Origin: Vibrio aerogenes
Lineage (GTDB): Bacteria > Pseudomonadota > Gammaproteobacteria > Enterobacterales > Vibrionaceae
NCBI RefSeq assembly: GCF_024346755.1
Contig: NZ_AP024861.1
Location: 496,001 to 560,000, forward strand
Direction: 5' to 3'
Length of the DNA stretch: 64,000 nucleotides
The position numbers and the translations under genes were made by a program. Below the pieces are notes generated by a model that was not told the origin of the DNA, did not search any database, and worked only from the letters and a program-made list of their open reading frames with translations. Below are positions 2,442-47,469 of the stretch, piece by piece. Positions within the stretch are counted from its first letter, which is position 1. Each line of letters begins with the position of its first letter.

Positions 2442-3388
<947 letters not shown>

Positions 3389-3438
3389 GCTGGTTTGTTC
3401 AGTGCTTTCCATAAAAATCATTGCATGAGGGAAACTAT

Positions 3439-4911
3439 ATGTCGATGAGTAAAGAACAAGCTCAGGCGCTGATCGATGAAGTGCTTGAAGTTTATCCTGA
3501 AGCTGCGAAGCAGGATCGTGCCAAACACATGGTGGTGAATGACAGCAGTGAAGACAGTGCAAAGTGCATTGTATCCAACCGTAAATCCGTTCCCGGTGTG
3601 ATGACGGTGCGTGGTTGTGCTTACGCCGGTTCGAAAGGTGTGGTCTGGGGACCGGTCAAAGATATGATTCATATCTCACATGGTCCGGTGGGTTGTGGTC
3701 AATACTCCCGTGCGGGACGCCGGAATTACTATACCGGAACCACGGGCGTCGATTCATTCGGTACGCTGAATGTCACCACGGATTTTCAGGAACGGGATAT
3801 CGTCTTCGGCGGAGACAAAAAACTGTCTTCAGCGATTGATGAGCTTGAACAATTATTCCCGCTGACCAAAGGGATTTCTGTTCAGTCCGAATGTCCGGTG
3901 GGCTTGATCGGGGATGATATTGAAGCAGTTGCCCGTCTGAAGGGTGAAGAAATTGGAAAGAAAATCATTCCGGTTCGCTGTGAAGGTTTCCGTGGGGTGT
4001 CTCAGTCTTTAGGTCACCACATTGCCAACGATACCTTCCGGGATTACGTATTTGAAGACGATCATGAATCTCCGGTGGAAACGACCGATTACGATGTGGC
4101 AATTATCGGTGACTATAACATCGGTGGTGACGCATGGTCTTCGCGGATCATTCTCGAAGATATGGGGCTGCGGGTGGTGGCTCAGTGGTCTGGTGACGGT
4201 ACATTACCTGAACTGGAAAATACGCCGAAAGTCAAACTGAACCTGGTTCACTGTTACCGTTCAATGAACTACATCGTGCGTTACATGGAAGAAAAACATG
4301 GCATTCCATGGGTCGAATATAACCTGTTTGGTCCGGCTAAAATAGAAGCCTCCATGCGCAAGATAGCTTCTTACTTCGATGAAAAGATTCAGAAACAAAC
4401 TGAAGAAGTCATTGCCCGTTATAAAGAACAGTGGAATGCAGTCATTGAGAAATACCGTCCACGTCTTGAAGGGAAAAAAGTCATGCTTTATGTCGGTGGT
4501 CTGCGCCCGCGCCATATTATCGGTGCTTACGAAGATCTGGGCATGGAAGTGGTTGGTGCCGGTTATGAGTTTGCTCATAACGATGACTATGTCAAAACCA
4601 CACCGGATGTCAAAGATGCCACGTTGCTGTTTGATGATGCCAGTGCCTATGAACTTGAGGAATTTGTGAAACGCCTTAATCCGGACATCGTTGGCTCCGG
4701 GGTGAAAGAGAAATACGTGTTCCACAAAATGGGTTATCCGTTCCGTCAGATGCACAGCTGGGATTACTCCGGTCCTTACCACGGTGTGGATGGTTTTGCC
4801 ATTTTTGCCCGTGACATGGATATGACGATTAACAACCCATGCTGGAAAAAATTGCAGGCACCATGGCTGGCAGAAAAGTCTGAAGATGATGCATTAGCGA
4901 AATCTGCTTAA
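3439..4911 (+). CDS. nifD: Nitrogenase MoFe protein alpha chain
   Basis: NifD is the alpha subunit of the alpha2beta2 dinitrogenase and carries the iron-molybdenum cofactor. I start it at the ATG at 3439, eight bases after a GAGGG ribosome site; an in-frame TTG at 3421 lacks one. That gives 490 residues. P-cluster ligands are Cys60 (RGCAYAG), Cys86 (GPVGCGQYS) and Cys152 ([11 protein letters not shown]). The cofactor ligands are the Cys in [10 protein letters not shown] and the His in [12 protein letters not shown]. All are present, so the protein looks functional. The homocitrate- and FeMo-co-building genes nifE, nifN, nifB and nifV are not in this window. Confidence 0.98.
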
Positions 4912-5002
4912 GGGTCTTTACCCCGAACCTTTCAGGAAAGGATTTCCAATTAATTTAACCGGGCCGGCGTTCACGGATTAGTGGCACGGCAGGAGAAGAC
5001 TC

Positions 5003-6574
5003 ATGACTCAAAAAGTTGAAGATATCAAAGCTGGGTACAAATTATTCCAGCAACCGGAGTATCAAAAGCTTATTAAAAATAAGCGGGATGCCTTTGAAAA
5101 TGCTGTCGACGCAGCCAAAGTGAAAGAGACCTTTGAGTGGACCACGACAGAAGAATACAAAGAACTGAACTTTGCCCGTAAGCATGTCACGATTGACCCG
5201 GCGAAAGCCTGTCAGCCTCTGGGCGCAGTGTTGTGTTCTCTCGGGTTCGAAAAAACATTGCCGTATGTGCATGGTTCTCAGGGATGTGTGGCCTATTTCA
5301 GAACGTATTTTAACCGTCATTTCAAAGAGCCGGTGGCGTGTGTTTCTGACTCAATGACTGAAGATGCCGCGGTATTTGGCGGACAGGACAATATATTTAA
5401 TGGGTTGGAAAATGCTTATGCGTTGTATAAACCAGAAGTGATTGCGGTTTCCACAACCTGTATGGCAGAGGTCATCGGGGATGACCTGAATGCCTTTATC
5501 GGTAATGCGAAAGATAAAGGTCATCTGCCATCAGAAGTACCCACGCCATTTGCCCATACGCCAAGTTTTGTCGGCAGTCACACCACTGGCTGGGACAATA
5601 TGTTTGAAGGGATTCTCAAATACTTTACGGCGCAGTCAATGGACGACAAAACGCCCGACAGCAACGGAAAAATCAACATTGTACCGGGATTTGAAACGTA
5701 TCTGGGTAACTACCGGGTGATCCGCCGGATGCTCGATGAGATGGATGTGGATTATTCATTCCTGTCTGATCCATCTGAAGTGCTCGATACACCGGCTGAT
5801 GGTGAGTACCGCATGTACGCTGGCGGAACACCGATTGCTGAAGTCAAAGATGCACCCAATGCAAAAGCCACGCTGTTGCTGCAACCATCACAGCTGGTTA
5901 AAACTAAAAAGTTCATTGAAACCGTCTGGCAGCAGGATGTGCCTAAATTCAACATTCCGATGGGCCTTGAATGGACCGATGATTTTGTCATGCAAGTCGC
6001 TGAGTTAACCGGAAAGCCAATCCCGGAATCGATCACCAAAGAGCGGGGTCGTTTAGTCGATATGATGACCGATTCTCATACCTGGCTGCACGGTGTCACC
6101 GTGTCGCTGTACGGTGATCCGGATTACCTGATGGGGATGTGTAAGTTCCTCACTGAACTGGGTTGTGAAATCAAACATGTGCTTTGTCATAACGCCAACA
6201 AACGCTGGAAGAAACAGATGGAGGCACAGCTGGCAGAATCACCTTACAGTGAAAATGCACAGGTCTTCTTCAATAAAGACTTATGGCATCTGCGTTCTCT
6301 GATGTTTACCGAGAAACCTGATCTGTTGATCGGTAATTCATACGGTAAATTCATTCAGCGCGATACGCTGGCAAAAGGGGCTGAGTTTGAAGTACCGCTG
6401 GTACGCATCGGCTTCCCGATCTTTGATCGTCATCACCTGCACCGCCAGTCAACACTGGGCTATGAAGGCGCGATGTATATTTTGACAACACTGGTGAATC
6501 AGGTGTTAGAAAAACTGGATCGTGACACGATTGAAATGGGCAAAACCGATCTCGGATTCGATTTGGTTCGTTAA
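5003..6574 (+). CDS. nifK: Nitrogenase MoFe protein beta chain
   Basis: NifK is the beta subunit of dinitrogenase and shares the [8Fe-7S] P-cluster with NifD. It is full length at 523 residues. P-cluster ligands are Cys70 (DPAKACQPLG), Cys95 (GSQGCVAYFR) and Cys153 (STTCMAEVIGDD), the same numbers as in Azotobacter NifK. An AGGAGAAG ribosome site lies close before the ATG. The 91-base spacer after nifD has no convincing promoter. A short hairpin with four Ts after the stop may reduce transcription into nifT and nifY. Confidence 0.98.
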   Translation: MTQKVEDIKAGYKLFQQPEYQKLIKNKRDAFENAVDAAKVKETFEWTTTEEYKELNFARKHVTIDPAKACQPLGAVLCSLGFEKTLPYVHGSQGCVAYFRTYFNRHFKEPVACVSDSMTEDAAVFGGQDNIFNGLENAYALYKPEVIAVSTTCMAEVIGDDLNAFIGNAKDKGHLPSEVPTPFAHTPSFVGSHTTGWDNMFEGILKYFTAQSMDDKTPDSNGKINIVPGFETYLGNYRVIRRMLDEMDVDYSFLSDPSEVLDTPADGEYRMYAGGTPIAEVKDAPNAKATLLLQPSQLVKTKKFIETVWQQDVPKFNIPMGLEWTDDFVMQVAELTGKPIPESITKERGRLVDMMTDSHTWLHGVTVSLYGDPDYLMGMCKFLTELGCEIKHVLCHNANKRWKKQMEAQLAESPYSENAQVFFNKDLWHLRSLMFTEKPDLLIGNSYGKFIQRDTLAKGAEFEVPLVRIGFPIFDRHHLHRQSTLGYEGAMYILTTLVNQVLEKLDRDTIEMGKTDLGFDLVR

Positions 6575-6877: not shown

Positions 6878-6997
6878 CTGCTTTTATTTTAAACGAAAAG
6901 GCTATTTTAAACAGACACAGAACCGGATATTGCAAACAGTACCGGGAGATGAGAACGGGAATTGCACAGATTTTCACATCGTCAGGAGGCAATGAAG

Positions 6998-7684
6998 ATG
7001 CAACAATCTTATATTTCAGAACAGGCAGCCTTACGGGTTGCGATAGCAACCCGCCTGCTGCCCAATGTCGGGATGAGCTCTCTGCTGGGGTTGCTGATTC
7101 AGCATCTGGGAGAACCTTTGTCGGAAGAGAAACTGGCCGGCATTTCACCCAAAGCATTTCGTGTGATGGTGAATTCTTTGGGAGAAGGGCCCAGCCGCAA
7201 AGATGTCACAAACGCACTGGCTGCATTGACTAATTCTGAAGCCAGTGATGTCGAAGCGCCGGTCGTTTCCTCCGTCGTTCCTCTCAAGGGGCCGACCATT
7301 CAGGTTGCGGTGACATCAAATCAGGGAGAAATGATCAATGGTCATTATGGCTCATGCATGCGGGTATTGGTTTATGAAGTTGGTACAACGAGTCACCAGT
7401 TAGTGGATGTCCGGAGTATCCGGGCGGACCTGACCGGGGAAGCCCGATCTACTTATATGGTTGATCTGATTCGGGATTGTCAGATGCTGTTTACACTGTC
7501 GATTGGTGGCCCGGCAGCGGCCAGAGTCACCCGCGCGAATATTCATCCGATCAAGAAAGCGACGCCTGTTCCGGCCGCGCAGGTGTTAACGGAACTGTCT
7601 GGTGTACTGGGTAACCATCCACCGCCATGGCTGAAGAAAATCATGGGCATCTCGTCTTCTCCGCAGCTGATGATGGAGGGGTGA
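6998..7684 (+). CDS. nifY: NifY, FeMo-cofactor/apodinitrogenase-binding protein
   Basis: NifY (NafY family) binds FeMo-cofactor and apodinitrogenase and helps cofactor insertion. I chose the ATG at 6998 because AGGAGG (6984-6989) is eight bases upstream; the ATG at 6992 is too close and an in-frame TTG at 6962 is unsupported. The product is 228 residues. The N-terminal helical domain (RVAIATRLLPNVGMSSLLGL) is followed by the NifX/NifB-C/NafY domain: INGHYGSCMRVLVYEV with the conserved His, then DCQMLFTLSIGGPAAARV, and the usual PPWLKKIMG end. It overlaps the next gene's ribosome site, so the two are probably coupled in translation. Confidence 0.93.
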   Translation: MQQSYISEQAALRVAIATRLLPNVGMSSLLGLLIQHLGEPLSEEKLAGISPKAFRVMVNSLGEGPSRKDVTNALAALTNSEASDVEAPVVSSVVPLKGPTIQVAVTSNQGEMINGHYGSCMRVLVYEVGTTSHQLVDVRSIRADLTGEARSTYMVDLIRDCQMLFTLSIGGPAAARVTRANIHPIKKATPVPAAQVLTELSGVLGNHPPPWLKKIMGISSSPQLMMEG

Positions 7685-21329: not shown

Positions 21330-22498
21330 TAATCTGACACCTCTTCTTGAAAAGTTGAGAGTTACCCGTTTTGATAAAGGTGCTGAATCTTCAATCAAAA
21401 CAAAAAGAGGCAACTCTCATGCTTCATACTAACAATCCCATTATCAAACACAAAGCCGGTTTATTAAATCTGGCGGAAGAATTAGGCAATGTCTCCAAAG
21501 CCTGTAAGGTCATGGGCGTATCCAGGGATACGTTTATCGCTATCAGGAGCTTGTCGAACAAGGCGGGATTGATGCTTTAGTGAATCAGTCCCGCAGGGCA
21601 CCCAATATCAAGAATCGGGTTGATGAATCGACAGAAAAGGCTGTGGTTAGTTACGCCATCGAATTTCCAGCTCATGGTCAGGCGCGTACCAGTAATGAAC
21701 TCCGTAAAAAAGGGATATTTGTTTCCGGCAGTGGTGTCCGTTCCATCTGGCTGCGCAATAACCTGGAGAACTTCAAAAAACGACTGGCCGCTTTAGAAGC
21801 CAAAGTCGCCAGTGAAGGGATTATTTTGACTGAAGAGCAAGTTGCAGCGCTGGAGAAAAAGAAACAGGATGATGAAGTTTGTGGTGAAATCGAGACACAT
21901 CATCCCGGCTATCTGGGGTCACAGGATACATTCTACGTTGGTAATCTGAAAGGTGTTGGCCGGATTTATCAGCAGACCTTTGTCGATACGCATAGTAAAG
22001 TGGCCTTCGCAAAACTTTACACCACGAAAACACCGATCACATCGGCAGATTTACTCAATGATCGCGTCTTACCGTTCTTTGAAGCCCATCAGCTTCCATT
22101 GTTGAGGATTTTGACGGACAGAGGCACTGAGTACTGTGGAAAAGTGGAGCAGCACGACTATCAGTTGTATCTGGCGATTAACGATATCGACCATACAAAA
22201 ACAAAAGCCAGACACCCGCAGACAAACGGTATCTGTGAGCGTTTCCATAAAACAATTCTTAACGAGTTTTATCAGGTGACGTTCAGGAAAAAACTCTGCA
22301 GCACACTGGAAGAGTTACAAAAAGATCTGGACGAATGGCTGGATTATTACAACAATGTTCGAACCCATCAGGGAAAGGTGTGCAATGGCCGGACGCCATT
22401 AGCAACATTACTGGATTGAAAAAAGATTTGGGCAGAAAAGAATTTAGCTCAAATCTAATCTGACGAAAGCACCGGAAAAATGGGTAACTGTCAGATCA
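21330..22498 (+). mobile_element. IS481-family insertion sequence, defective
   Basis: The element is outlined by TAATCTGACA at 21330-21339 and its near-complement TGTCAGATCA at 22489-22498, one mismatch in ten. Inside, GAGTTACCC on the left matches GGGTAACTG on the right. It holds one transposase reading frame, interrupted by a frameshift. I found no clear target-site duplication, so the ends are approximate. Confidence 0.65.
21419..22419 (+). pseudogene. IS481-family DDE transposase, frameshifted
   Basis: The first frame encodes a helix-turn-helix start (MLHTNNPIIKHKAGLLNLAE then VSKACKVMGVSRDT) and then goes out of frame near 21532-21535. The second frame resumes YRYQELVEQGG and runs through the integrase core (DTHSKVAFAKLY, LRILTDRGTEYCGK, HPQTNGICERFHKTILNEFY) to DYYNNVRTHQGK at the end. 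The DDE residues are D (VDTHSK), D (LTDRGTE) and E (NGICERFH). One missing base in ACGTTTATCGC explains the break (TTT TAT CGC expected). The product is split and probably inactive unless ribosomes shift frame there. Confidence 0.8.
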
Positions 22499-22635
22499 GG
22501 TCTGAGCTAGTACATACCGGGCAGTTGCCACCCGATACGATAAATTAGCAAGAAATTACAGCAGTACAGTGGCTCTATCTTTTGTCATGATGTGGTTGCC
22601 GATGTTCTGCTGAATAAATAATAAACAAAGATCAA
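22499..22635. other. Short spacer between two insertion sequences
   Basis: This 137-base stretch between the IS481-type and IS110-type elements has no start codon with a ribosome site and no recognised gene. It may be the remains of the sequence into which both elements inserted. Confidence 0.4.
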
Positions 22636-22722
22636 CGATGAGATGGTCTCCTCCCTTTAACGGCATCGCAATGTGCCAAACTTGGATTTGAGGATTCAAG
22701 TTAACAAGGCGAGGAGACCTAT

Positions 22723-23751
22723 ATGAATATTACAACTGTTGGACTGGATTTGGCAAAAAATGTAAGCCATGTCGTGTGTTGTAACCAAGCTGGAAAAATA
22801 GTCAGGAAAAGAATGCTCCGCCGTTCAGAAATACTGACCTTTTTCACAAAATTACCTAAGTGTTTAGTTGGTGTAGAAGCTTGTGCGACAGCACACTATT
22901 GGGCAAGAGAAATTCAGAAGTGTGGGCATGATGTTAAACAGATAGCCCCACAACATGTGAAGCCATATGTTCGTGGCAATAAGAATGATTACAATGATGC
23001 TCTGGCTATCGCTGAAGCCGTTGTGCGGCCAGAAATGCGCTTTGTACGAACTAAAAGCCAAGAGCAGTTAGATATCAAAGCGCTGCATGTTCTTCGTAAA
23101 AAATGTGAACGTGACAGAACAGCTAATTGCAATGGTATTCGCGGGATTCTGGCTGAGCAGGGGATTGTCATACCTCTGGGGGTTAGTCATGTTTACAAGC
23201 GGTTACCTGAGTTATTTGATAGTCAAATAGACAATGGTTTAAGTAAACTGTTCAAAGAGTTACTGAAGCATCACTATCAGAAGTTAGTCGAGCTTAAAAA
23301 TCATTTAGATTTTTATACACAAAAAATTAAACAGCTTAGCCAGTGTGAAGAATGCCAGCGGCTACAGAGTGTTCCGGGAATCGGCCCGATAGTGGCAAGC
23401 GCTGTTTATGAGTATATTGGTGACGGTAGCGGCTTTAAGAATGGTAGAGCTGTTTCAGCTTCAATAGGTTTAGTCCCCAGACAACATAGTTCTGGAGGAA
23501 AACATAATCTATTAGGTATCAGTAAGCGTGGCGATGGCTATTTAAGGACTTTGCTTATTCACGGAGCAAGAGCTGTGATTAGAGTGAGTGCAGGGAAAGA
23601 CACTCCGCTGGCAAAATGGATTGAACGCCTGATACTCACTCGGGGAAGAAATAAAGCTGCAGTAGCTTTGGCTAATAAACTTGCACGAGTGAGCTGGGCC
23701 ATACTTAAGAATGGCAGCTGTTACGACGAAGAGTATTTAGTAGCAGCTTAG
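22723..23751 (+). CDS. IS110-family transposase (DEDD recombinase)
   Basis: This 342-residue protein is complete. The N-terminal RuvC-like domain has the four acidic residues: Asp9 (VGLDLAKN), Glu (GVEACATAHYW) and two Asp in NKNDYNDALAIAEAV. The C-terminal Tnp domain has the helix-hairpin LQSVPGIGPIVASAVYEYI and the conserved catalytic Ser region RQHSSGGKHNLLG. GGCGAGGAGACC before the ATG gives a strong ribosome site and also resembles the terminal repeat. Enzymes of this family use a structured non-coding RNA from the element to choose target DNA. Confidence 0.93.
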   Translation: MNITTVGLDLAKNVSHVVCCNQAGKIVRKRMLRRSEILTFFTKLPKCLVGVEACATAHYWAREIQKCGHDVKQIAPQHVKPYVRGNKNDYNDALAIAEAVVRPEMRFVRTKSQEQLDIKALHVLRKKCERDRTANCNGIRGILAEQGIVIPLGVSHVYKRLPELFDSQIDNGLSKLFKELLKHHYQKLVELKNHLDFYTQKIKQLSQCEECQRLQSVPGIGPIVASAVYEYIGDGSGFKNGRAVSASIGLVPRQHSSGGKHNLLGISKRGDGYLRTLLIHGARAVIRVSAGKDTPLAKWIERLILTRGRNKAAVALANKLARVSWAILKNGSCYDEEYLVAA

Positions 23752-38573: not shown

Positions 38574-38589
38574 TGGCACATCTTGTGCG
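38574..38589 (+). promoter_or_regulatory. Sigma-54 promoter of hydN-fdhF
   Basis: TTGGCACATCTTGTGC has TGGCAC at the -24 position and GG/GC exactly ten bases apart (38575-38576 and 38587-38588). It is 78 bases before hydN and fits control by the FhlA-like activator encoded downstream. Confidence 0.78.
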
Positions 38590-38665: not shown

Positions 38666-39214
38666 ATGAATCGATTTATTTTTGCTGACGCCAATAAGTG
38701 TATTGGTTGTCGAACTTGTGAGCTTGCATGCGCGATTTCTCATCAAAATGAAGACATTGGAACTCTGGCAGATCCTAAAAATTTCACACCAAGACTGAGC
38801 GTGATAAAAAATGCACAGGTGACAGTACCTGTCATGTGTCGTCAATGCGATGATGCACCTTGTGCTCAGGTTTGTCCGAACAATGCAATCGTGCATGAAG
38901 ATGGTTATATCAAAGTCATTCAGTCCCGTTGTATTGGTTGTAAGACATGTGCAATTGCATGTCCTTACGGAGCAATGAACATAGAGACTACGATGGTCGA
39001 AAATCATTCAGGTTATTCGGGCCTTTTCCAAAGAAAAACACCTCAGTCACAGGCAGTTAAATGTGATTTATGTTCCCACAGTGAAGCTGGACCAGCTTGT
39101 GTGCAGGTTTGTCCGACTCAGGCGATTAAGTTGATGGTTCCTGAAGAAGTTGAGTTGAGTACTCAACAGAAACGGGAAGCTGCCGCAACCAGTGCTTCTG
39201 TCATTTCAGTGTGA
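38666..39214 (+). CDS. hydN: HydN-type electron-transfer ferredoxin (four [4Fe-4S])
   Basis: HydN is an iron-sulfur protein that accompanies formate dehydrogenase H and probably carries its electrons towards hydrogenase. The 182-residue protein has four cysteine clusters of the HycB/HydN type: CIGCRTCELAC near residue 12, CRQCDDAPCAQVCP, CIGCKTCAIACP and CDLC...CVQVCP. E. coli HydN has the same plan and 175 residues. It lies 26 bases before fdhF in one operon, behind a sigma-54 promoter, so it should be made anaerobically when formate accumulates. Confidence 0.93.
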   Translation: MNRFIFADANKCIGCRTCELACAISHQNEDIGTLADPKNFTPRLSVIKNAQVTVPVMCRQCDDAPCAQVCPNNAIVHEDGYIKVIQSRCIGCKTCAIACPYGAMNIETTMVENHSGYSGLFQRKTPQSQAVKCDLCSHSEAGPACVQVCPTQAIKLMVPEEVELSTQQKREAAATSASVISV

Positions 39215-39240: not shown

Positions 39241-41385
39241 ATGAAAAAATCTATCGTAGTTTGTCCTTACTGTGGTACGGGCTGTAAACTGAAACTATTA
39301 GTCAAAGATAACAAAATTGTTGGTGCTGAACCTGCTAATGGCCGGACCAATGAAGGCCAGCTGTGTTTAAAAGGTTACTACGGCTGGGACTTTTTGAACG
39401 ATACTAAGTTGCTGACACCACGTCTGAAACAGCCAATGATTCGCCGTTCCAGAGAGAGTAAGCTTGAAGCTGTAAGCTGGGATGAAGCAATTGACTTCGC
39501 TGCTGAAAAACTCCAGTCCATCAAAGATAAATACGGTCCTGATGCAATTATGACCACAGGTTCAGCCCGTGGTCCGGGTAATGAATCAAACTATGTAATG
39601 CAAAAATTTGCCCGGGCAGTGATTGGGACAAATAATGTTGATCACTGTGCACGTGTTTGTCATGCACCGTCTGTTTCTGGTTTGGAATCGACAGTGGGCA
39701 ACGGAGCGATGAGTAATTCAATTCCTGAAATTGAAGAAACTAAATGTTTATTGATTTTTGGATACAACGTTGCGGACTCACACCCTGTTATTGCGAAAAG
39801 AATTTTTAAAGCCAAGGACAATGGTGCCAAAGTCATTGTGTGTGATCCACGCAAGATTGAGTCTGTCCGGATCGCTGACCAATGGCTTCAGTTGAAAAAT
39901 GGTGCCAATATGGCGCTGGTTAATGCGATTGCTTATACCCTGATCGATGAAGATCTGTATGACAAAGCTTATGTTCAGAACTTTACTGAAGGATTCGAAG
40001 AGTTCCGTAAAATTGTCATGGATTATGCGCCGGAAAAAGTTGAACATATCACCGGCTTGAAAGGTAGTGATGTTCGTCTGGCTGCGAGAACCTATGCTGC
40101 AGCATCTGAAGCTATGATTTTATGGGGAATGGGGGTCACTCAGTTTGGGCAGGCTGTTGATGTGGTTCGGGGTCTTGCTGCTCTGGCATTGATGACTGGA
40201 AACTTTGGCCGCCGTGGTGTGGGTGTGGGTCCTGTCCGTGGACAGAATAATGTGCAAGGGACATGTGATTTAGGCATGTTGCCTCACCAATATCCTGGTT
40301 ACCAGTCTGTTAAAGATGATGCAATTCGTGAAAAATTCGAGAAAGCCTGGGGTGTGAAACTGTCGTCTGAACCTGGCTATCGTTTGACTGAAGTCGGTCA
40401 TAAAGTGGATGAAGGTGCATGTAAGGCATTTTATATTTTCGGCGAAGACCCAGCCCAGACGGAAGCTGATTTGAGTGCGATGCGTGAAACGATGAAAAAA
40501 ATGGAACTGGTCATCGTTCAGGACATCTTTATGACAAAAACGGCTGAAATGGCTGATATTGTTTTCCCTTCAACCAGTTGGGGCGAGCATGAAGGGGTTT
40601 ACACTTGTGCTGACCGCGGGTTCCAACGCTTTTATAAAGCAGTCACACCACCTGAAGGTGTGAAACCTGACTGGGAAATCTTTGGTCTGATGGCAACCCG
40701 GATGGGATATCCAATGCAGTATAAAAATACTGAGGAAATCTGGGATGAAATGCGTTCTCTGGCGCCACTTTTTGCTGGGGCATCTTATGAGAAAATGGAA
40801 GGTGAAAAGTCCGTTCTTTGGCCTTGTCCAACAGAAGACCATCCTGGTACACCATTCCTGTTTGAAGATAATAAATTTGCGACTGAATCAGGTAAAGCTT
40901 TGTTCATCGGTGCTGAGTGGCGTCCACCACTGGAAAAAATTGATGAAGAATATCCTTTAATTTTGTCAACAGTGCGTGAGATTGGACACTATTCATGTCG
41001 TTCAATGACAGGCAACTGTACCGCACTTGCTACATTGGCTGACGAACCTGGATTTATTCAGATGAACCCTGAAGATGCGAAAGCGTTGGGAATTGTTGAT
41101 CAACAATTAGTATGGGTTTCATCTCGTCGCGGGAAAGTCATTACCCGGGCTAACTTCTCTGAGCGTGTCAATAAAGGCGCAGTCTATATGACTTATCAGT
41201 GGTGGGTTGGTGCATGTAATGAATTAACTATCGAGCATGTTGATCCAATTTCAAGTACACCTGAATTCAAATTCTGTGCAGTCAAAGTTGAATCAATTGA
41301 AGATCAGTCATGGGCTGAGAATTATGTTCAAGTAGAATATAGTAATATGAAAGCACGTCTTAATTCTCACGTAGAATATGCCTGA
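39241..41385 (+). CDS. fdhF: Formate dehydrogenase H, cysteine form
   Basis: FdhF oxidises formate to CO2 with a molybdopterin cofactor and a [4Fe-4S] cluster. The 714-residue protein has the cluster motif CPYCGTGC-x-L near residue 8, with a fourth Cys in GQLCLKG. At residue 140 (NVDHCARVCHAPS, codon TGT at 39658-39660), where E. coli FdhF has selenocysteine, it has cysteine. Molybdopterin-binding segments such as GYNVADSHPVIAKRIFKAK and EDPAQTEAD, plus GQNNVQGTCDLGMLPHQYPG, are intact. The length equals the E. coli enzyme. It is cotranscribed with hydN and followed by a strong terminator. A partner hydrogenase is not encoded in the window. Confidence 0.96.
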   Translation: MKKSIVVCPYCGTGCKLKLLVKDNKIVGAEPANGRTNEGQLCLKGYYGWDFLNDTKLLTPRLKQPMIRRSRESKLEAVSWDEAIDFAAEKLQSIKDKYGPDAIMTTGSARGPGNESNYVMQKFARAVIGTNNVDHCARVCHAPSVSGLESTVGNGAMSNSIPEIEETKCLLIFGYNVADSHPVIAKRIFKAKDNGAKVIVCDPRKIESVRIADQWLQLKNGANMALVNAIAYTLIDEDLYDKAYVQNFTEGFEEFRKIVMDYAPEKVEHITGLKGSDVRLAARTYAAASEAMILWGMGVTQFGQAVDVVRGLAALALMTGNFGRRGVGVGPVRGQNNVQGTCDLGMLPHQYPGYQSVKDDAIREKFEKAWGVKLSSEPGYRLTEVGHKVDEGACKAFYIFGEDPAQTEADLSAMRETMKKMELVIVQDIFMTKTAEMADIVFPSTSWGEHEGVYTCADRGFQRFYKAVTPPEGVKPDWEIFGLMATRMGYPMQYKNTEEIWDEMRSLAPLFAGASYEKMEGEKSVLWPCPTEDHPGTPFLFEDNKFATESGKALFIGAEWRPPLEKIDEEYPLILSTVREIGHYSCRSMTGNCTALATLADEPGFIQMNPEDAKALGIVDQQLVWVSSRRGKVITRANFSERVNKGAVYMTYQWWVGACNELTIEHVDPISSTPEFKFCAVKVESIEDQSWAENYVQVEYSNMKARLNSHVEYA

Positions 41386-41441: not shown

Positions 41442-41464
41442 ATTGATTGATTGTATTATTATTT

Positions 41465-43524
41465 ATGAACAGAATAGCTCAGGAGTTAATGATATTTTCA
41501 AAAGCAATGCTATCAGTTCACGATACATCTGACTTATTGAAATTTATTAACGATGAAGAATGCTCATTTCTGCAAGTAGAAAGAATTAATATTATCTTGA
41601 ACCGCGATCATCAGAATGAAGCGGTTCTTTATTATGTAAATAATGGCGAAGTATGTTCGGAGGTTTTTAATCGTCAGGAAACGGATTTATATAATCAGAC
41701 TTATGATGACGGTATTTACGAGCTGGATGGAAAACGTTTTTGCTATTATTACCCTCAATTTTCTGATCATCCTGCCTATAAAAATCTTAGCCACTATCGT
41801 CGAATGCCGTTAAATACGGTGAGTCATCAATTAGGAGAAATTGAATTTATTAATCCTGAAATTGATGACATGGTCGATGAAGAAAAGCATTTTCGTTTGA
41901 TAAATAGCATGCTGGTTTCTTTTGTTGCTCATGTGATCGAGCATGAGCTCGCGTCCAGTAAAGCTCAGCAGTTGAGTGATGAGCGGGATAATTACCATAT
42001 CCTGGTGGATGTCACAAATGCTGTCATTAGTCAAAGCAGTAAAGAGAGCTTGCTTAATTCGCTGCTTCGTTGTTTGAACCAGCATTTTTCTATGTGTGAT
42101 TTATCCCTGATTGAAAAGTATCAGGGTCATTACATCCAGCACTCAAGTCGTCTGGATAAAGATGAACTGGTCTACCAATGTCATTTTTTCAGCGATGATT
42201 CTGCCTTTGAACAAGCAGTTACAAGTGATGAACCTGTTTGTTTGAGTGGGCATCAACTTCGTCAGGTTTTTTTCCGGAAAAATACTATTGAGCTGGATGA
42301 AAGTGTGGATCAAGTTATCATCATTCCCATGGTATTTCGTACCTGCAAGGTCGGTTATATTGCTTATGTGATGAAGAAATGTGTAGAAGCTCAATGGTGT
42401 AATACGGAACTATTGCAACAGATTGCTGCAAGGGTTGCCATGGCAATGCATAGCCTGAGTGTTCATGAAGCACATACAAAAGCTATTCCTCAAAATGAGT
42501 ATATTTCAATTGGAGTTCATGATGAAAGGCACCAGATTTTTGATGATATCATCAGTCAAAGTGAAGCAATGAATCGGGTGCTTGATCAGGTTGCGATGGT
42601 TGCTGATTGTGACAGTACCGTATTGATATTAGGAGAAACAGGCACTGGTAAAGAGCTGATAGCAAGAGCTATTCATAAAATGAGTCGCCGTAGCAAAAAA
42701 CGGATGGTGAAAATGAATTGTGCGGCTGTGCCTGAAGGATTGTTTGAAAGTGAACTGTTCGGGCATGAAAGAGGGGCTTTTACCGGAGCGATTCATCAAA
42801 GGGTCGGACGCTTTGAGCAAGCGAATCAGGGAACACTGTTTTTAGATGAAATTGGTGATATGCCATTAGAACTTCAGCCCAAGTTACTGAGGGTATTGCA
42901 GGAGAATGAAATTGAGCGTGTTGGTAAGAACCAGCTCATCCCTGTGGATGTAAGAATTGTTGTTGCGACGAATGCTGATCTGGTTTCAATGGTTCAGAAG
43001 AAAACATTCAGGAACGATTTATATTACCGGCTTAATATTTTCCCGATTGAAATCCCCCCCCCCTGCGGGAGAGACCGGAAGATATCCCATTACTGGTCAA
43101 ATATTTCAGCCGGGTTATTTCAAAGCAAATGGGTAAAAAAATAACAGCGATAACCAATGAAACGATGCGAGCTTTGACCGAGTTTTCGTGGCCGGGTAAT
43201 GTCAGACAATTAAGAAATTTTATCGAGCGTTCGGTGATATTAACCCGTGGTGATGTATTAAATGCACCTTTAGAAGAGTTAGTTAAGTTAGGTTTACATA
43301 TTTCTTTACCTGAAAGTGATAATCCTTCTCCACGCAATAACAACTCACGTGATTATCCGGCAGCGATTGATCGGGAGTCAATCATTCAGGCCTTAAGAGA
43401 AAGTAATGGTATTGTTGCGGGTGTTCGTGGTGCGGCTGCAAAGTTAGGCTTGAAAAGGACGACTCTTTTATCCCGGATGCAGAAAATGGGTATCAGTAGT
43501 AAAGATTATTTACCAGAGATGTGA
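41465..43524 (+). pseudogene. fhlA: FhlA-like sigma-54 activator, frameshifted at a poly-C tract
   Basis: This gene matches FhlA, the formate-sensing activator of the formate hydrogenlyase regulon. The first frame has GAF-like sensor domains (about 1-340), then the AAA+ domain: ILGETGTGKELIARAIHKMS, the sigma-54 contact GAFTGA, LFLDEIGDMPLELQPKLLRV, and FRNDLYYRLNIFPIEIPP. There, at ten C residues (43054-43063), the frame changes. The next frame continues the expected protein (RERPEDIPLLVKYF, FSWPGNVRQLRNFIERSVIL) and the C-terminal HTH (GVRGAAAKLGLKRTTLLSRM). Eight or eleven Cs would restore one 680-odd residue protein. As read it is truncated after the AAA+ core at 43144. Confidence 0.88.
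43054..43063 (+). repeat. Run of ten C inside fhlA
   Basis: Ten consecutive C bases lie at the exact point where the fhlA reading frame breaks. FhlA-type proteins have I/L-P-P-L-R-E-R here, which needs eight Cs, or eleven for one extra Pro. Mononucleotide runs of this length are prone to slippage. Confidence 0.95.
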
Positions 43525-43547: not shown

Positions 43548-44384
43548 ATGTGCAGAGCTGACGGGAAATTTGGCACAAACTCAGCCAGTAAAAAGCAAAT
43601 TATTCGTTACAAGCAGGGCGCTTTTCAGAAAAACGCTGAAGATGTGGTGGTTCAGGAAGTGCCTGTTGCGCTGGAATATAACGGTATTGCTTATACCGTT
43701 ATGATGTGTACACCGATTGATCTGGAGTTCTTTGCCGTTGGTTTTTCTGTCACGGAAGGCATTATCGATCATGACAGGGATATCCATAATATAGAAATTC
43801 AGGAAGATGCTGAAGGGATTACCCTGTCAGTTGAAATTGCGAATCGTTGTATCAGCAGATTAAAAGAAAAACGCCGCTCTTTAATGGGAGTAACTGGCTG
43901 TGGTATCTGTGGTGCTGAGCAGTTAAATGGTGTTCGCCGGTGTGTGACTCCTGTGGCTGATTCTACCCGGTTCGATATTGAGAAATTAGATCCTGTGTTG
44001 ATACAATTGAATGAAAAGCAATCTTTAAATCAGCAAACCGGTGCCAGTCATGCCGCTGCTTACATTGATGTCGATGGTAACATTCAAGCTGTTTTTGAAG
44101 ATGTTGGTCGCCATATTGCACTGGATAAACTAATTGGGTGGATACTCAGGCATCATTGCAGTCAGGGGGCTGTTTTAGTCACGAGTCGTGCCAGCTTTGA
44201 AATGGTTCAGAAAGTTGCAGTATGTGGTATTGAAATATTGTTGGCTGTCTCTGCAGCGACACATATGGCGATTGAACTTGCAGAGCGTATGAATATTACT
44301 TTATGCGGCTATTGTCGTCCGGGAAAGGCAAATATATATACTCACGGAAGCCGAATTACCGATAATCATGTGGTTAATCATTAA
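43548..44384 (+). CDS. fdhD: Formate dehydrogenase accessory sulfurtransferase
   Basis: FdhD passes sulfur from IscS to the molybdopterin of formate dehydrogenases, needed for activity. The 278-residue protein has the catalytic CxxC loop at Cys118 and Cys121 (VTGCGICG) and the conserved FEDVGRHIALDKLIGW. SRASFEMVQKVAVCGIEIL and the tail CGYCRPGKANIYTH also match the family. The gene follows fhlA by 23 bases. The cysteine-type FdhF upstream is the obvious client. Confidence 0.94.
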   Translation: MCRADGKFGTNSASKKQIIRYKQGAFQKNAEDVVVQEVPVALEYNGIAYTVMMCTPIDLEFFAVGFSVTEGIIDHDRDIHNIEIQEDAEGITLSVEIANRCISRLKEKRRSLMGVTGCGICGAEQLNGVRRCVTPVADSTRFDIEKLDPVLIQLNEKQSLNQQTGASHAAAYIDVDGNIQAVFEDVGRHIALDKLIGWILRHHCSQGAVLVTSRASFEMVQKVAVCGIEILLAVSAATHMAIELAERMNITLCGYCRPGKANIYTHGSRITDNHVVNH

Positions 44385-45186: not shown

Positions 45187-47469
45187 ATGGATCAACGCCG
45201 TCTAATTATTATTTCCGGTATTGTTCAGGGAGTTGGTTTCCGCCCTTTTATTTACCAGCTGGCTACGAAGTATGCTTTGTCCGGATGGGTTAATAATGAT
45301 TCTGGTGGCGTTCAGATTGATGTTCAGGGGACACCGGATAATATTGAATCATTTTCACAGCATATCATCAGCAATCCGCCTGTTTTAGCGAGGATTGATG
45401 CATTCAATAGTTCTGATCTGAGCCCGGTTGAACGGGATGGATTTTATATCCATCATAGTCATCGTGAACAGGATATCTCAGTTTTTATTACGCCGGATCA
45501 GTCTGTATGCCACGAGTGTCTGGAGGAGTTACGTCATCCTCAGTCACGCTATTATCAATATCCGTTTACAAATTGTACAAACTGTGGTCCCAGATATACG
45601 ATCATTGAGCAATTACCCTATGATCGTTGCAATACGTCAATGACACAATTTGAGATGTGCCCCGAATGTCGGCAGTCATATCAAAACCCTTTGGACCGGC
45701 GTTATCATGCTCAGCCGGTCAGTTGTGCTCAATGTGGTCCTTCGGTTAGCTTGCTTGACCCATCCATGAGAGAAATCTCATCCGGGCAGGATGCGATTTC
45801 CATAACCGCGCAATTGTTATCACAGGGAAAGATAGTCGCCATCAAAGGAATTGGTGGTTTTCATCTGGTCTGTGATGCTCTCTGTAAAGATGCGGTCATT
45901 CATTTGAGAGAGCTTAAACATCGTCACCTGAAGCCATTCGCAGTTATGGCAGAAAATATATTAGCAGCAGAAGAATATGTGACCGGGAGTCCCCCGGAAT
46001 GGGCTGCATTGTCATCTTCTGTCGCACCGATTGTATTAATGAAACGGAAAAACAATGCCCGGTTAGTTTCTGAAGTTGCGCCTGTCGGGCCATATATAGG
46101 TATGATGCTGCCATATACACCGCTGCATGTTCTATTGTTCGATGCATTGAAATCAATGAATGCAACACATCTTTTAGTCATGACAAGTGCCAATCGCAGT
46201 GGCTTACCTTTAGCGATTCATCGCGATGAGATTGAAAATCAGTTTGGTCAGTCCCTTGATGGCATTCTTGACCATAATCGCCCGATCGTTCATCCGTGTG
46301 ACGATAGCCTGGTTCACTTTGCCGGAGAGCATGTCCGGGTTATCCGGATGGCCAGAGGTTATGCACCATTGAGTCTTAAAACAGATTATGCAGGTCAGAC
46401 TTTGTTGGGGATGGGGGCACAACAAAAAGCAACCATTGCGCTGGCAACTCAGGGACAGTGGTTTTTATCTCCTCACATTGGTGATACTGACAATCTGGAT
46501 ATTCAGACCAGATACCAGCAGGTTACACATGATTTCCTGTCTGTGTATCAATGTCAGCCATCGGCTTATATTCATGATAAACATCCGGGATATTTTTCAT
46601 CGCAACTTGTCTCTGAAACAAAGAAACCGCATCAGGCTATTCAACATCATTATGCACATATTTTGGCTGTGATGGCTGAACATGGTCTGGAGGACAAAGT
46701 CATTGGCTTCGCTTTTGATGGCACGGGGTGGGGAGATGATGAAACAGTATGGGGCGGTGAAGTTATTTTAGCTGATACACAAGGGTTTCAAAGATGTGGA
46801 CATTTACGTCCATTCCGGTTAATTGGCGGAGAAAAAGCGATTCGTGAGCCGGCAAGGTTACTGTTTGCGATGTTGCTTGAATGCTATTCCCCTGATGAAA
46901 TAAAAATGCTGAAACATCCGGCTTTTGCACATTGGTCTGACGTTTATTTTCAGAACCTGTACCAGCTTTGGGCCTCAGGCAGTCATTCTCCCTATTGCAC
47001 TTCTGTGGGCCGGTTATTTGATGTCTGGGCCTGCTTGCTTTTGCTCATAGAAAATGTCGATTTTGAAGGAGAAAGCGGGTTAAGGATCGAAGATGCAGCC
47101 AGCCGGGCTTCTGTATCTGATATGACTTTAAAACTCGCTTTTCCCTGGACAGAGTCACAGGTTTTAGACTGGGAACCAGCCTTGGTGACTTGCATTGAAC
47201 AGCGAATCTGGGTGCAGCAATCCGGAGATGTTAGGGCTTGTCTGGGGCTAATTCAGGGGCTTGTCGCCGCTATCATTCAGATGGCAGAAAATTTTCACAT
47301 GTATCCGGCTGTGTTATCTGGTGGCGTATTTCAAAACCGGTTAATCATGGATTCATTATGGCAGCAATGGCCTTCTGAAATACAACCTTTTTATAGTGGA
47401 GAATTGATTCCCGTAAATGATGGTGGTATCGCTGCCGGGCAGGTTTGGTATGGCATGCACCAGATTTGA
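45187..47469 (+). CDS. hypF: Hydrogenase maturation carbamoyltransferase
   Basis: HypF makes the cyanide ligands of the NiFe active site from carbamoyl phosphate, passing a carbamoyl group to HypE. The 760-residue protein has an N-terminal acylphosphatase domain (SGIVQGVGFRPFIYQLA, about 8-90) and zinc-finger pairs (CHECLEEL...CTNCGP, CPECRQSY...CAQCGP). A YrdC-like domain follows (VAIKGIGGFHLVCDA), then the C-terminal Kae1-like domain (QHHYAHILAVMAEH, GFAFDGTGWGDDETVWGGE, SGGVFQNRLI). All modules are intact. It starts a hypFCDEAB set. Confidence 0.95.
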   Translation: MDQRRLIIISGIVQGVGFRPFIYQLATKYALSGWVNNDSGGVQIDVQGTPDNIESFSQHIISNPPVLARIDAFNSSDLSPVERDGFYIHHSHREQDISVFITPDQSVCHECLEELRHPQSRYYQYPFTNCTNCGPRYTIIEQLPYDRCNTSMTQFEMCPECRQSYQNPLDRRYHAQPVSCAQCGPSVSLLDPSMREISSGQDAISITAQLLSQGKIVAIKGIGGFHLVCDALCKDAVIHLRELKHRHLKPFAVMAENILAAEEYVTGSPPEWAALSSSVAPIVLMKRKNNARLVSEVAPVGPYIGMMLPYTPLHVLLFDALKSMNATHLLVMTSANRSGLPLAIHRDEIENQFGQSLDGILDHNRPIVHPCDDSLVHFAGEHVRVIRMARGYAPLSLKTDYAGQTLLGMGAQQKATIALATQGQWFLSPHIGDTDNLDIQTRYQQVTHDFLSVYQCQPSAYIHDKHPGYFSSQLVSETKKPHQAIQHHYAHILAVMAEHGLEDKVIGFAFDGTGWGDDETVWGGEVILADTQGFQRCGHLRPFRLIGGEKAIREPARLLFAMLLECYSPDEIKMLKHPAFAHWSDVYFQNLYQLWASGSHSPYCTSVGRLFDVWACLLLLIENVDFEGESGLRIEDAASRASVSDMTLKLAFPWTESQVLDWEPALVTCIEQRIWVQQSGDVRACLGLIQGLVAAIIQMAENFHMYPAVLSGGVFQNRLIMDSLWQQWPSEIQPFYSGELIPVNDGGIAAGQVWYGMHQI

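What the first reader, a model, noticed from the sequence alone, without database searches (positions are those of the whole stretch)
43054..43063. Poly-C tract switches the reading frame of the formate regulon activator FhlA
The fhlA-like gene is intact on both sides of a run of ten C, but the two halves lie in different frames. The protein needs eight Cs (I-P-P-L-R-E-R) or eleven. A mononucleotide run at the exact break, inside the master activator of formate hydrogenlyase, is what a phase-variable (contingency) locus looks like. In the present state the activator lacks the end of its AAA+ domain and its DNA-binding domain, so hydN-fdhF, which has a sigma-54 promoter, should be off. Tract length would then switch gas production. 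A fixed mutation or a sequencing error at the homopolymer are the main alternatives.
Basis: partly seen in the sequence, partly recalled or inferred. Interest (0 to 1): 0.8.

Follow-up and report, generated by a model that had tools for sequence, protein, structure and literature searches.

The report
Frameshifted fhlA in a mutS-deleted Vibrio
A run of ten Cs puts the two halves of the gas-production activator FhlA out of frame in this marine Vibrio, and the likeliest reason is that the strain has lost its DNA mismatch-repair gene mutS, not that the run is an evolved on/off switch.

Summary
Ten Cs lie at 43054-43063 and fhlA-like sequence changes frame there. It is the longest C/G run in the 5.37-Mb genome. 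Both halves are otherwise intact (dN/dS 0.026 and 0.043 against the sister species). No second FhlA was found.

The phase-variation reading is not supported. None of 15 relatives read at the site has more than three consecutive Cs there, so the tract is private to this genome.

The genome offers another cause. A ~2.6-kb deletion relative to the sister removes the last codons of nlpD, all of rpoS and the 3' half of mutS. Of 227 genus genomes, 226 have the MutS ATPase domain; this one does not. Other genes are split at homopolymers: fliI, oadA, a polyketide synthase, an EamA transporter, a GH53 glycosidase and, on weaker evidence, an ATP-grasp gene.

Best explanation: slippage in a mismatch-repair-null strain, making fhlA a casualty. 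The tract may still flip often in this strain. Assembly error is the main rival; reads were not available.

The parts
38574..38589 (+). possible sigma-54 (-24/-12) promoter before hydN
   Evidence: TGGCAC-N5-TTGCW with 2 mismatches, 77 bases before the hydN start; number of such hits in the window is at chance
38666..39214 (+). hydN-like 4Fe-4S electron-transfer protein (presumed FhlA target)
   Evidence: best NCBIfam match NF007658 HydN, 207 bits, below cut-off 260
39241..41385 (+). fdhF-like formate dehydrogenase alpha subunit
   Evidence: TIGR01591 Fdh-alpha 908 bits, over cut-off
41489..43051 (+). fhlA upstream piece: N-terminal sensory region and complete Sigma54_activat core
   Evidence: NF011958 FhlA positions 99-547/692; PF00158 1-168/168
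43054..43063 (+). run of ten C where the frame changes; not found in relatives
43064..43144 (+). out-of-frame tail read by the upstream ORF to its stop
   Evidence: 565-aa ORF 41447-43144
43078..43524 (+). fhlA downstream piece: AAA+ lid and Fis-type HTH (ORF from ATG 43129)
   Evidence: PF25601 over cut-off, PF02954 at cut-off, PF18024 just below; NF011958 574-689/692; same length as the sister's downstream piece, dN/dS 0.043
43548..44384 (+). fdhD, formate dehydrogenase accessory sulfurtransferase
   Evidence: TIGR00129 254.5 bits, over cut-off
45187..47469 (+). hypF hydrogenase maturation, open
   Evidence: TIGR00143 714 bits
47854..48996 (+). hypD hydrogenase maturation, open
   Evidence: TIGR00075 501 bits
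48989..49990 (+). hypE hydrogenase maturation, open
   Evidence: TIGR02124 438 bits
50347..51327 (+). hypB hydrogenase maturation, open
   Evidence: NF007775 432 bits

Best explanation
The frame break in fhlA is a recent real slippage mutation in a private C-run, in a strain without mismatch repair. Shown: a deletion of about 2.6 kb relative to the sister removes the last codons of nlpD, all of rpoS, a 129-aa ORF and the 3' half of mutS including its ATPase domain. Shown: genes at several other long C/G runs are split in the same way. Inferred: synonymous third-position changes happened to create a long C-run in this lineage; without MutS, slipped copies of the run were not repaired; the out-of-frame length reached the assembly by drift or because FhlA and RpoS are dispensable in culture. 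The FhlA product lacks the AAA+ lid and the HTH, so FHL genes should not be activated (inferred from the domain order of FhlA). The tract is a casualty of the mutator and not an evolved switch, though in this background it should keep changing length.
For: MutS: TIGR01070 matches only positions 1-498 of 840 here and 1-840 in the sister. The deletion is a blastn gap between syntenic flanks with a 4-base ACTT overlap at the junction, so it is not a homopolymer artefact; the sister's missing stretch holds RpoS over its cut-off. No MutS_V domain in the genome, against 226 of 227 in the genus search. No RpoS over cut-off. The remaining mutS part shows dN/dS about 0.04 (first 1500 bases), so the loss is recent. 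Splits at runs: of 21 C/G runs of 8 or more, 5 split a gene on domain or homologue evidence (fhlA, fliI, PKS, EamA, GH53), 1 more on weak evidence (ATP-grasp), 2 alter a gene's end, 9 are in frame, 4 lie at boundaries or are unclear. Of the sister's 18 such runs, none was recognised as splitting a gene, 13 are in frame, 5 intergenic or unclear, from ORF lists only. Fisher p = 0.041 for 5 v 0, 0.018 for 6 v 0, 0.004 for 8 v 0; sorted by eye. In an 800-kb comparison, four clear breaks in this genome, each at a homopolymer: C10, G9, G6, A8. In Vibrio fischeri and V. cholerae deletion of mutS raised single-base indels 473- and 334-fold, mostly in homopolymers and rising with run length (PMC5854121, passages). 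A 524-aa oadA fragment with 100% identity lies on 2 contigs and no intact copy of this species is among the 120 best rows, hinting that a second deposit has the same break.
Against: The number of C9 matches here (8) is unremarkable among the 227 genomes, many of which have more, so long C/G runs as such are not in excess. The 800-kb census alone is not significant (4/446 v 0/450 p = 0.06; v 1/450 p = 0.22), and the run comparison weakens to p = 0.08 if one sister run were a split (6 v 1). A homology-free frame-switch scan was weak: 4 switches of 21 here, one of them an ordinary gene boundary and fhlA itself scored unclear, v 0 of 18 in the sister. No reads were available, and a long-read assembly could make homopolymer errors independently of the mutS deletion. 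The order of the mutS deletion and the fhlA change is unknown. MutH was not checked.
Confidence: 0.64

Rival explanations
1. Assembly or base-calling error at homopolymers: the cell has an intact fhlA and the published sequence miscounts the run.
For: The clear breaks are at homopolymers; both fhlA halves are under strong purifying selection; frames are also lost in genes one would expect to be needed, such as fliI and oadA. How the genome was sequenced is unknown.
Against: The mutS-rpoS deletion cannot be a homopolymer miscall. In the first 400 kb, 0 of 257 A/T runs of 6 or more in conserved coding sequence were at a clear break, v 3 of 22 C/G runs; but in the second 400 kb one A8 run was. 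The oadA fragment appears on 2 contigs, which might however be copies of one assembly.
Confidence: 0.23
2. Evolved phase-variation (contingency) locus: tract length is kept by selection to switch FHL and gas production.
For: Longest C/G run of the genome, inside a master activator, at the exact frame break.
Against: No relative read has the tract: at most 3 consecutive Cs at the site in 15 of 15, including the 94%-identical sister. FhlA controls metabolism, not a surface structure (usual targets of contingency loci, recalled). The lost mutS explains instability without selection on the tract.
Confidence: 0.06
3. Ordinary fixed loss of fhlA by drift or selection, unrelated to mutS; gas production is being lost in this lineage.
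For: Another genus genome, G095, has fhlA split at about codon 282 with no homopolymer there, so fhlA can break in other ways.
Against: The break lies at the longest C-run; other genes are split at runs too; the FHL structural and maturation genes looked at are open; no further decay in fhlA.
Confidence: 0.07

Closest known systems
Mismatch-repair-deficient (mutS) mutator strains, e.g. Vibrio fischeri and V. [quoted passage not shown]
   Same: Loss of MutS; frameshifts at homopolymers, more at longer runs
   Different: Here the loss is a deletion seen in a genome sequence that also removes rpoS; mutation rate not measured
Vibrio splendidus 12B01 hypermutators (PMC5296598, abstract and passages seen)
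   Same: Marine Vibrio turned mutator by mutS inactivation; the mutS-rpoS region is described as unusually variable
   Different: There a mobile element excises from mutS at the HTPMMQQ motif leaving a 2-bp scar; here that motif is intact and a ~2.6-kb deletion cuts the gene from its 3' side
Simple-sequence contingency loci (poly-C/poly-G phase variation of Neisseria, Campylobacter; recalled, with a search listing)
   Same: Poly-C run in a coding sequence at a frame break
   Different: Tract not found in relatives, gene is a metabolic regulator, no length variation shown
FhlA of Escherichia coli (NF011958; PMC11291172 abstract)
   Same: Sensory N-terminus, AAA+ core, C-terminal DNA-binding domain; gene near hydN, fdhF and hyp genes
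   Different: Split by a frameshift here; the upstream piece scores 373 bits, below the whole-protein cut-off of 830

Membership tests
Phase-variable (contingency) locus | Repeat tract inside the gene or promoter at which frame or expression changes | tested here: met
   C10 at the frame break
Phase-variable (contingency) locus | Tract present, with variable length, in relatives | tested here: not met
   0 of 15 relatives have a run over 3 Cs at the site
Phase-variable (contingency) locus | Reversible, high-frequency length change within one strain | not testable with these tools
   needs reads or colonies
MutS-deficient mutator | Inactivating lesion in mutS (or mutL, mutH) | tested here: met
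   mutS lacks its 3' half, ATPase domain absent; MutL open, profile 1-551/555; MutH not tested
MutS-deficient mutator | Frameshifts at homopolymers across the genome | tested here: met
   5 firm and 1 weak of 21 C/G runs split genes v 0 recognised of 18 in the sister, p = 0.041 or 0.018; census alone p = 0.06
MutS-deficient mutator | Raised mutation rate measured | not testable with these tools
   needs culture
FhlA (NF011958) | Whole-protein score over cut-off 830 bits | tested here: not met
   pieces score 373 and 111 bits; the sister's intact copy reads through the site
FhlA (NF011958) | Genomic neighbourhood with hydN, fdhF and hyp genes | tested here: met

The most novel reading that the evidence does not exclude
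One deletion that removed both rpoS and mutS turned passive C/G runs across this genome into working reversible switches: gas production (fhlA), flagellar export (fliI), oxaloacetate decarboxylation (oadA) and secondary metabolism would each flip by slippage in the same culture. Phase variation would then be acquired genome-wide in one step, without selection on any tract, and fhlA, holding the longest C/G run, would flip fastest.
Probability: 0.25. Interest if true: 0.6.

Novelty: new member of a known kind. Interest (0 to 1): 0.4.

Why it matters
It shows how a striking homopolymer break can be misread as an evolved switch when the cause lies elsewhere in the genome. If confirmed, the genome held for this species is that of a mutator that has also lost rpoS. 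Its apparent pseudogenes (gas production, flagellar export, oxaloacetate decarboxylase) should then not be taken as species traits, and the strain would be a ready test of how fast homopolymers in coding sequence flip without mismatch repair.

Tried and rejected
Second FhlA copy as backup: rejected; the other 20 matches of the upstream piece in the genome cover only the AAA+ part or little more.

Excess of long C/G runs in this genome: rejected; 8 C9 matches is unremarkable by eye among 227 genomes.

Tract kept in relatives: rejected.

Census candidates sorted by eye. One search gave 9 in this genome. I kept 4 (539058, 629712, 760833, 856976). I dropped 569559 and 782700 (sister ORF extended upstream of the likely start), 776868 (no recognisable protein), 930145 (repeat-like, 11-base shift) and 1137016 (ParE-like, no run, possibly a real break). 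In the sister it gave 7 rows. I dropped 629438, 722653 and 825962 (upstream extensions), 921124 twice (looks like the rRNA region, by eye) and 931023 (looks phage-like), and left 1102115 as a possible break. An earlier 400-kb version gave 7 and 4 rows.

My confidence in the best explanation went from 0.66 to 0.64 for that, the rest going to the artefact and drift rivals.

Strain comparison: the protein database hides members of 90% clusters, so whether another strain has an intact fhlA could not be read off (P0001 has 3 members, P0053 has 2). Species name: the sister is labelled Vibrio quintilis (P0001, identical to L009); that the window is Vibrio aerogenes is recalled and untested.

Literature: no paper on a phase-variable fhlA is among the 12 listed of 64 papers holding at least two of three terms; other searches. 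I saw abstracts or passages only.

Full report
Observation. The run of ten C lies at 43054-43063 and is the only C/G run of ten in the 5.37-Mb genome, which holds 21 runs of 8 or more. The first-order expectation for a C-run of 10 or more is 0.011 per 64 kb. Upstream, 41489-43051 matches the FhlA model up to position 547 of 692 and contains a full Sigma54_activat core. Downstream, the ORF from 43129 carries the AAA+ lid and marginal Fis-type HTH matches and fits the same model at 574-689. The pieces are in different registers. Both are otherwise intact and under strong purifying selection against the closest relative G127 (dN 0.029, dS 1.14 upstream; dN 0.058, dS 1.33 downstream). The break is therefore recent, or not real.

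Relatives. Of 227 genus genomes, 15 match the upstream piece at E of 1e-100 or better, this one included. Thirteen of the other 14 have open frames of 680-697 aa. G095 shows only 402 aa because its fhlA is split at about codon 282, away from any homopolymer. Adding a Photobacterium locus (L023), 15 relatives were read at the site: the longest C-run is 3. The tract is thus private as far as seen. Synonymous differences from the sister surround it, and synonymous sites are near saturation at this distance, so a long C-run arising by chance in this lineage is not strange.

Function. No second FhlA copy was found. A hyf-type hydrogenase operon at C1 about 1,060,000-1,072,000 and the hyp genes in the window have open frames; subunit B scores over its hydrogenase-4 cut-off, the HycI protease and small-subunit-type domains match Pfam, and the other operon genes are named by eye. 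Among the FHL genes looked at, the activator is the one broken. A sigma-54-like site lies 77 bases before hydN, but such sites occur at chance frequency in the window. Loss of lid and HTH should abolish activation; this follows from the domain order of FhlA (abstract of PMC11291172) and is inferred.

The cause outside the window. MutS matches its family only over positions 1-498 of 840. Comparison with G127 shows why: G000 sequence up to about 750,104 aligns to the sister up to 740,802, and from 750,101 onward to the sister from 743,446. The missing stretch holds the last codons of nlpD, all of rpoS, a 129-aa ORF without a family match and the 3' half of mutS; the junction has a 4-base overlap. 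In the sister RpoS and MutS score over their cut-offs and MutS is full length; NlpD is the best match of its gene, below cut-off. The MutS ATPase domain is absent from the genome and present in the other 226 genomes of the genus search. No RpoS is found over its cut-off; the best match is a 637-aa frame well below it. MutL is open; MutH was not checked. The mutS remnant shows no decay.

Frameshifts elsewhere. In 800 kb compared with the sister (446 matched ORFs one way, 450 the other), four clear breaks occur in this genome, at C10 (fhlA), G9 (fliI), G6 (oadA) and A8 (a PAS-type sensor, by eye), and none that is clear in the sister (dropped rows are listed under Tried and rejected). This difference alone is not significant (p = 0.06, or 0.22 if one doubtful sister case is counted). 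Of the 21 C/G runs of 8 or more, 5 split a gene by domain or homologue evidence (fhlA, fliI, a ketosynthase-acyltransferase gene, an EamA transporter and a GH53 glycosidase), 1 probably splits an ATP-grasp gene, 2 alter a gene's end (an oligopeptide permease and an EhuR-like regulator), 9 are in frame and 4 are boundaries or unclear. Of the sister's 18 runs none was recognised as splitting a gene, 13 are in frame and 5 intergenic or unclear, judged from ORF lists only. Fisher p is 0.041 (5 v 0), 0.018 (6 v 0) or 0.004 (8 v 0), and 0.08 if one sister run were a split. These sortings were made by eye after seeing the data. A blind coding-potential scan points the same way but weakly (4 switches of 21, one an ordinary boundary and fhlA unclear, v 0 of 18). 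The number of C9 runs is not unusual.

Literature. In V. fischeri and V. cholerae mutS deletion raised indels 102- and 142-fold, and single-base indels 473- and 334-fold, mostly at homopolymers with rate rising with length (PMC5854121, passages). A marine Vibrio mutator by mutS inactivation is known, and the mutS-rpoS region is described as variable (PMC5296598, abstract and passages). V. aerogenes and the other Gazogenes-clade species are described as stable gas producers (PMC3873509, passages), so a broken fhlA would be atypical if the window is that species, which is untested.

Artefact or real. The deletion cannot be a homopolymer miscall. A 100%-identical 524-aa oadA fragment lies on two contigs with no intact conspecific copy among the 120 best rows, which hints that a second deposit has the same break, though the two contigs could be copies of one assembly and cluster members are hidden. 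The fhlA C-terminal ORF is listed on one contig only. Without reads the artefact reading keeps rather more than one chance in five.

Verdict. A real and recent lesion in a mutS-null, rpoS-null strain is the best-supported reading; an evolved contingency locus is not. In such a strain the run should remain unstable, so practical flipping is possible and testable.

Noticed in passing
G000:C1 about 750,101 (outside the window; junction in L184): Deletion of about 2.6 kb relative to the sister removing the last codons of nlpD, all of rpoS and the 3' half of mutS, with a 4-base overlap at the junction.
   Followed up: yes
L146:1753-3113: fliI, the flagellar export ATPase gene, is split at a run of nine G.
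   Followed up: yes
L185:692-2484: oadA (oxaloacetate decarboxylase alpha) is split near its start at a run of six G; its fragment is on two contigs in the protein database.
   Followed up: partly
L150:1347-3999, L159:1432-2404, L160:1522-2675, L161:1414-2632: A polyketide synthase, an EamA transporter, an ATP-grasp gene (weak evidence) and a GH53 glycosidase are split at runs of eight or nine C/G.
   Followed up: partly
L140:9117-11131: fhlA of another genus genome (G095) is split at about codon 282, away from any homopolymer: an independent break.
   Followed up: partly
window 2507-6574: nifH, nifD and nifK, each over its NCBIfam cut-off; the next gene, 6962-7684, looks nif-related by eye but has no match at 1e-30.
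   Followed up: partly
window 39241-41385: The FdhF-like enzyme has cysteine where E. coli FdhF has selenocysteine (position recalled).
   Followed up: no
window 21580-23751: An rve-type integrase-core transposase and an IS110-family transposase.
   Followed up: partly
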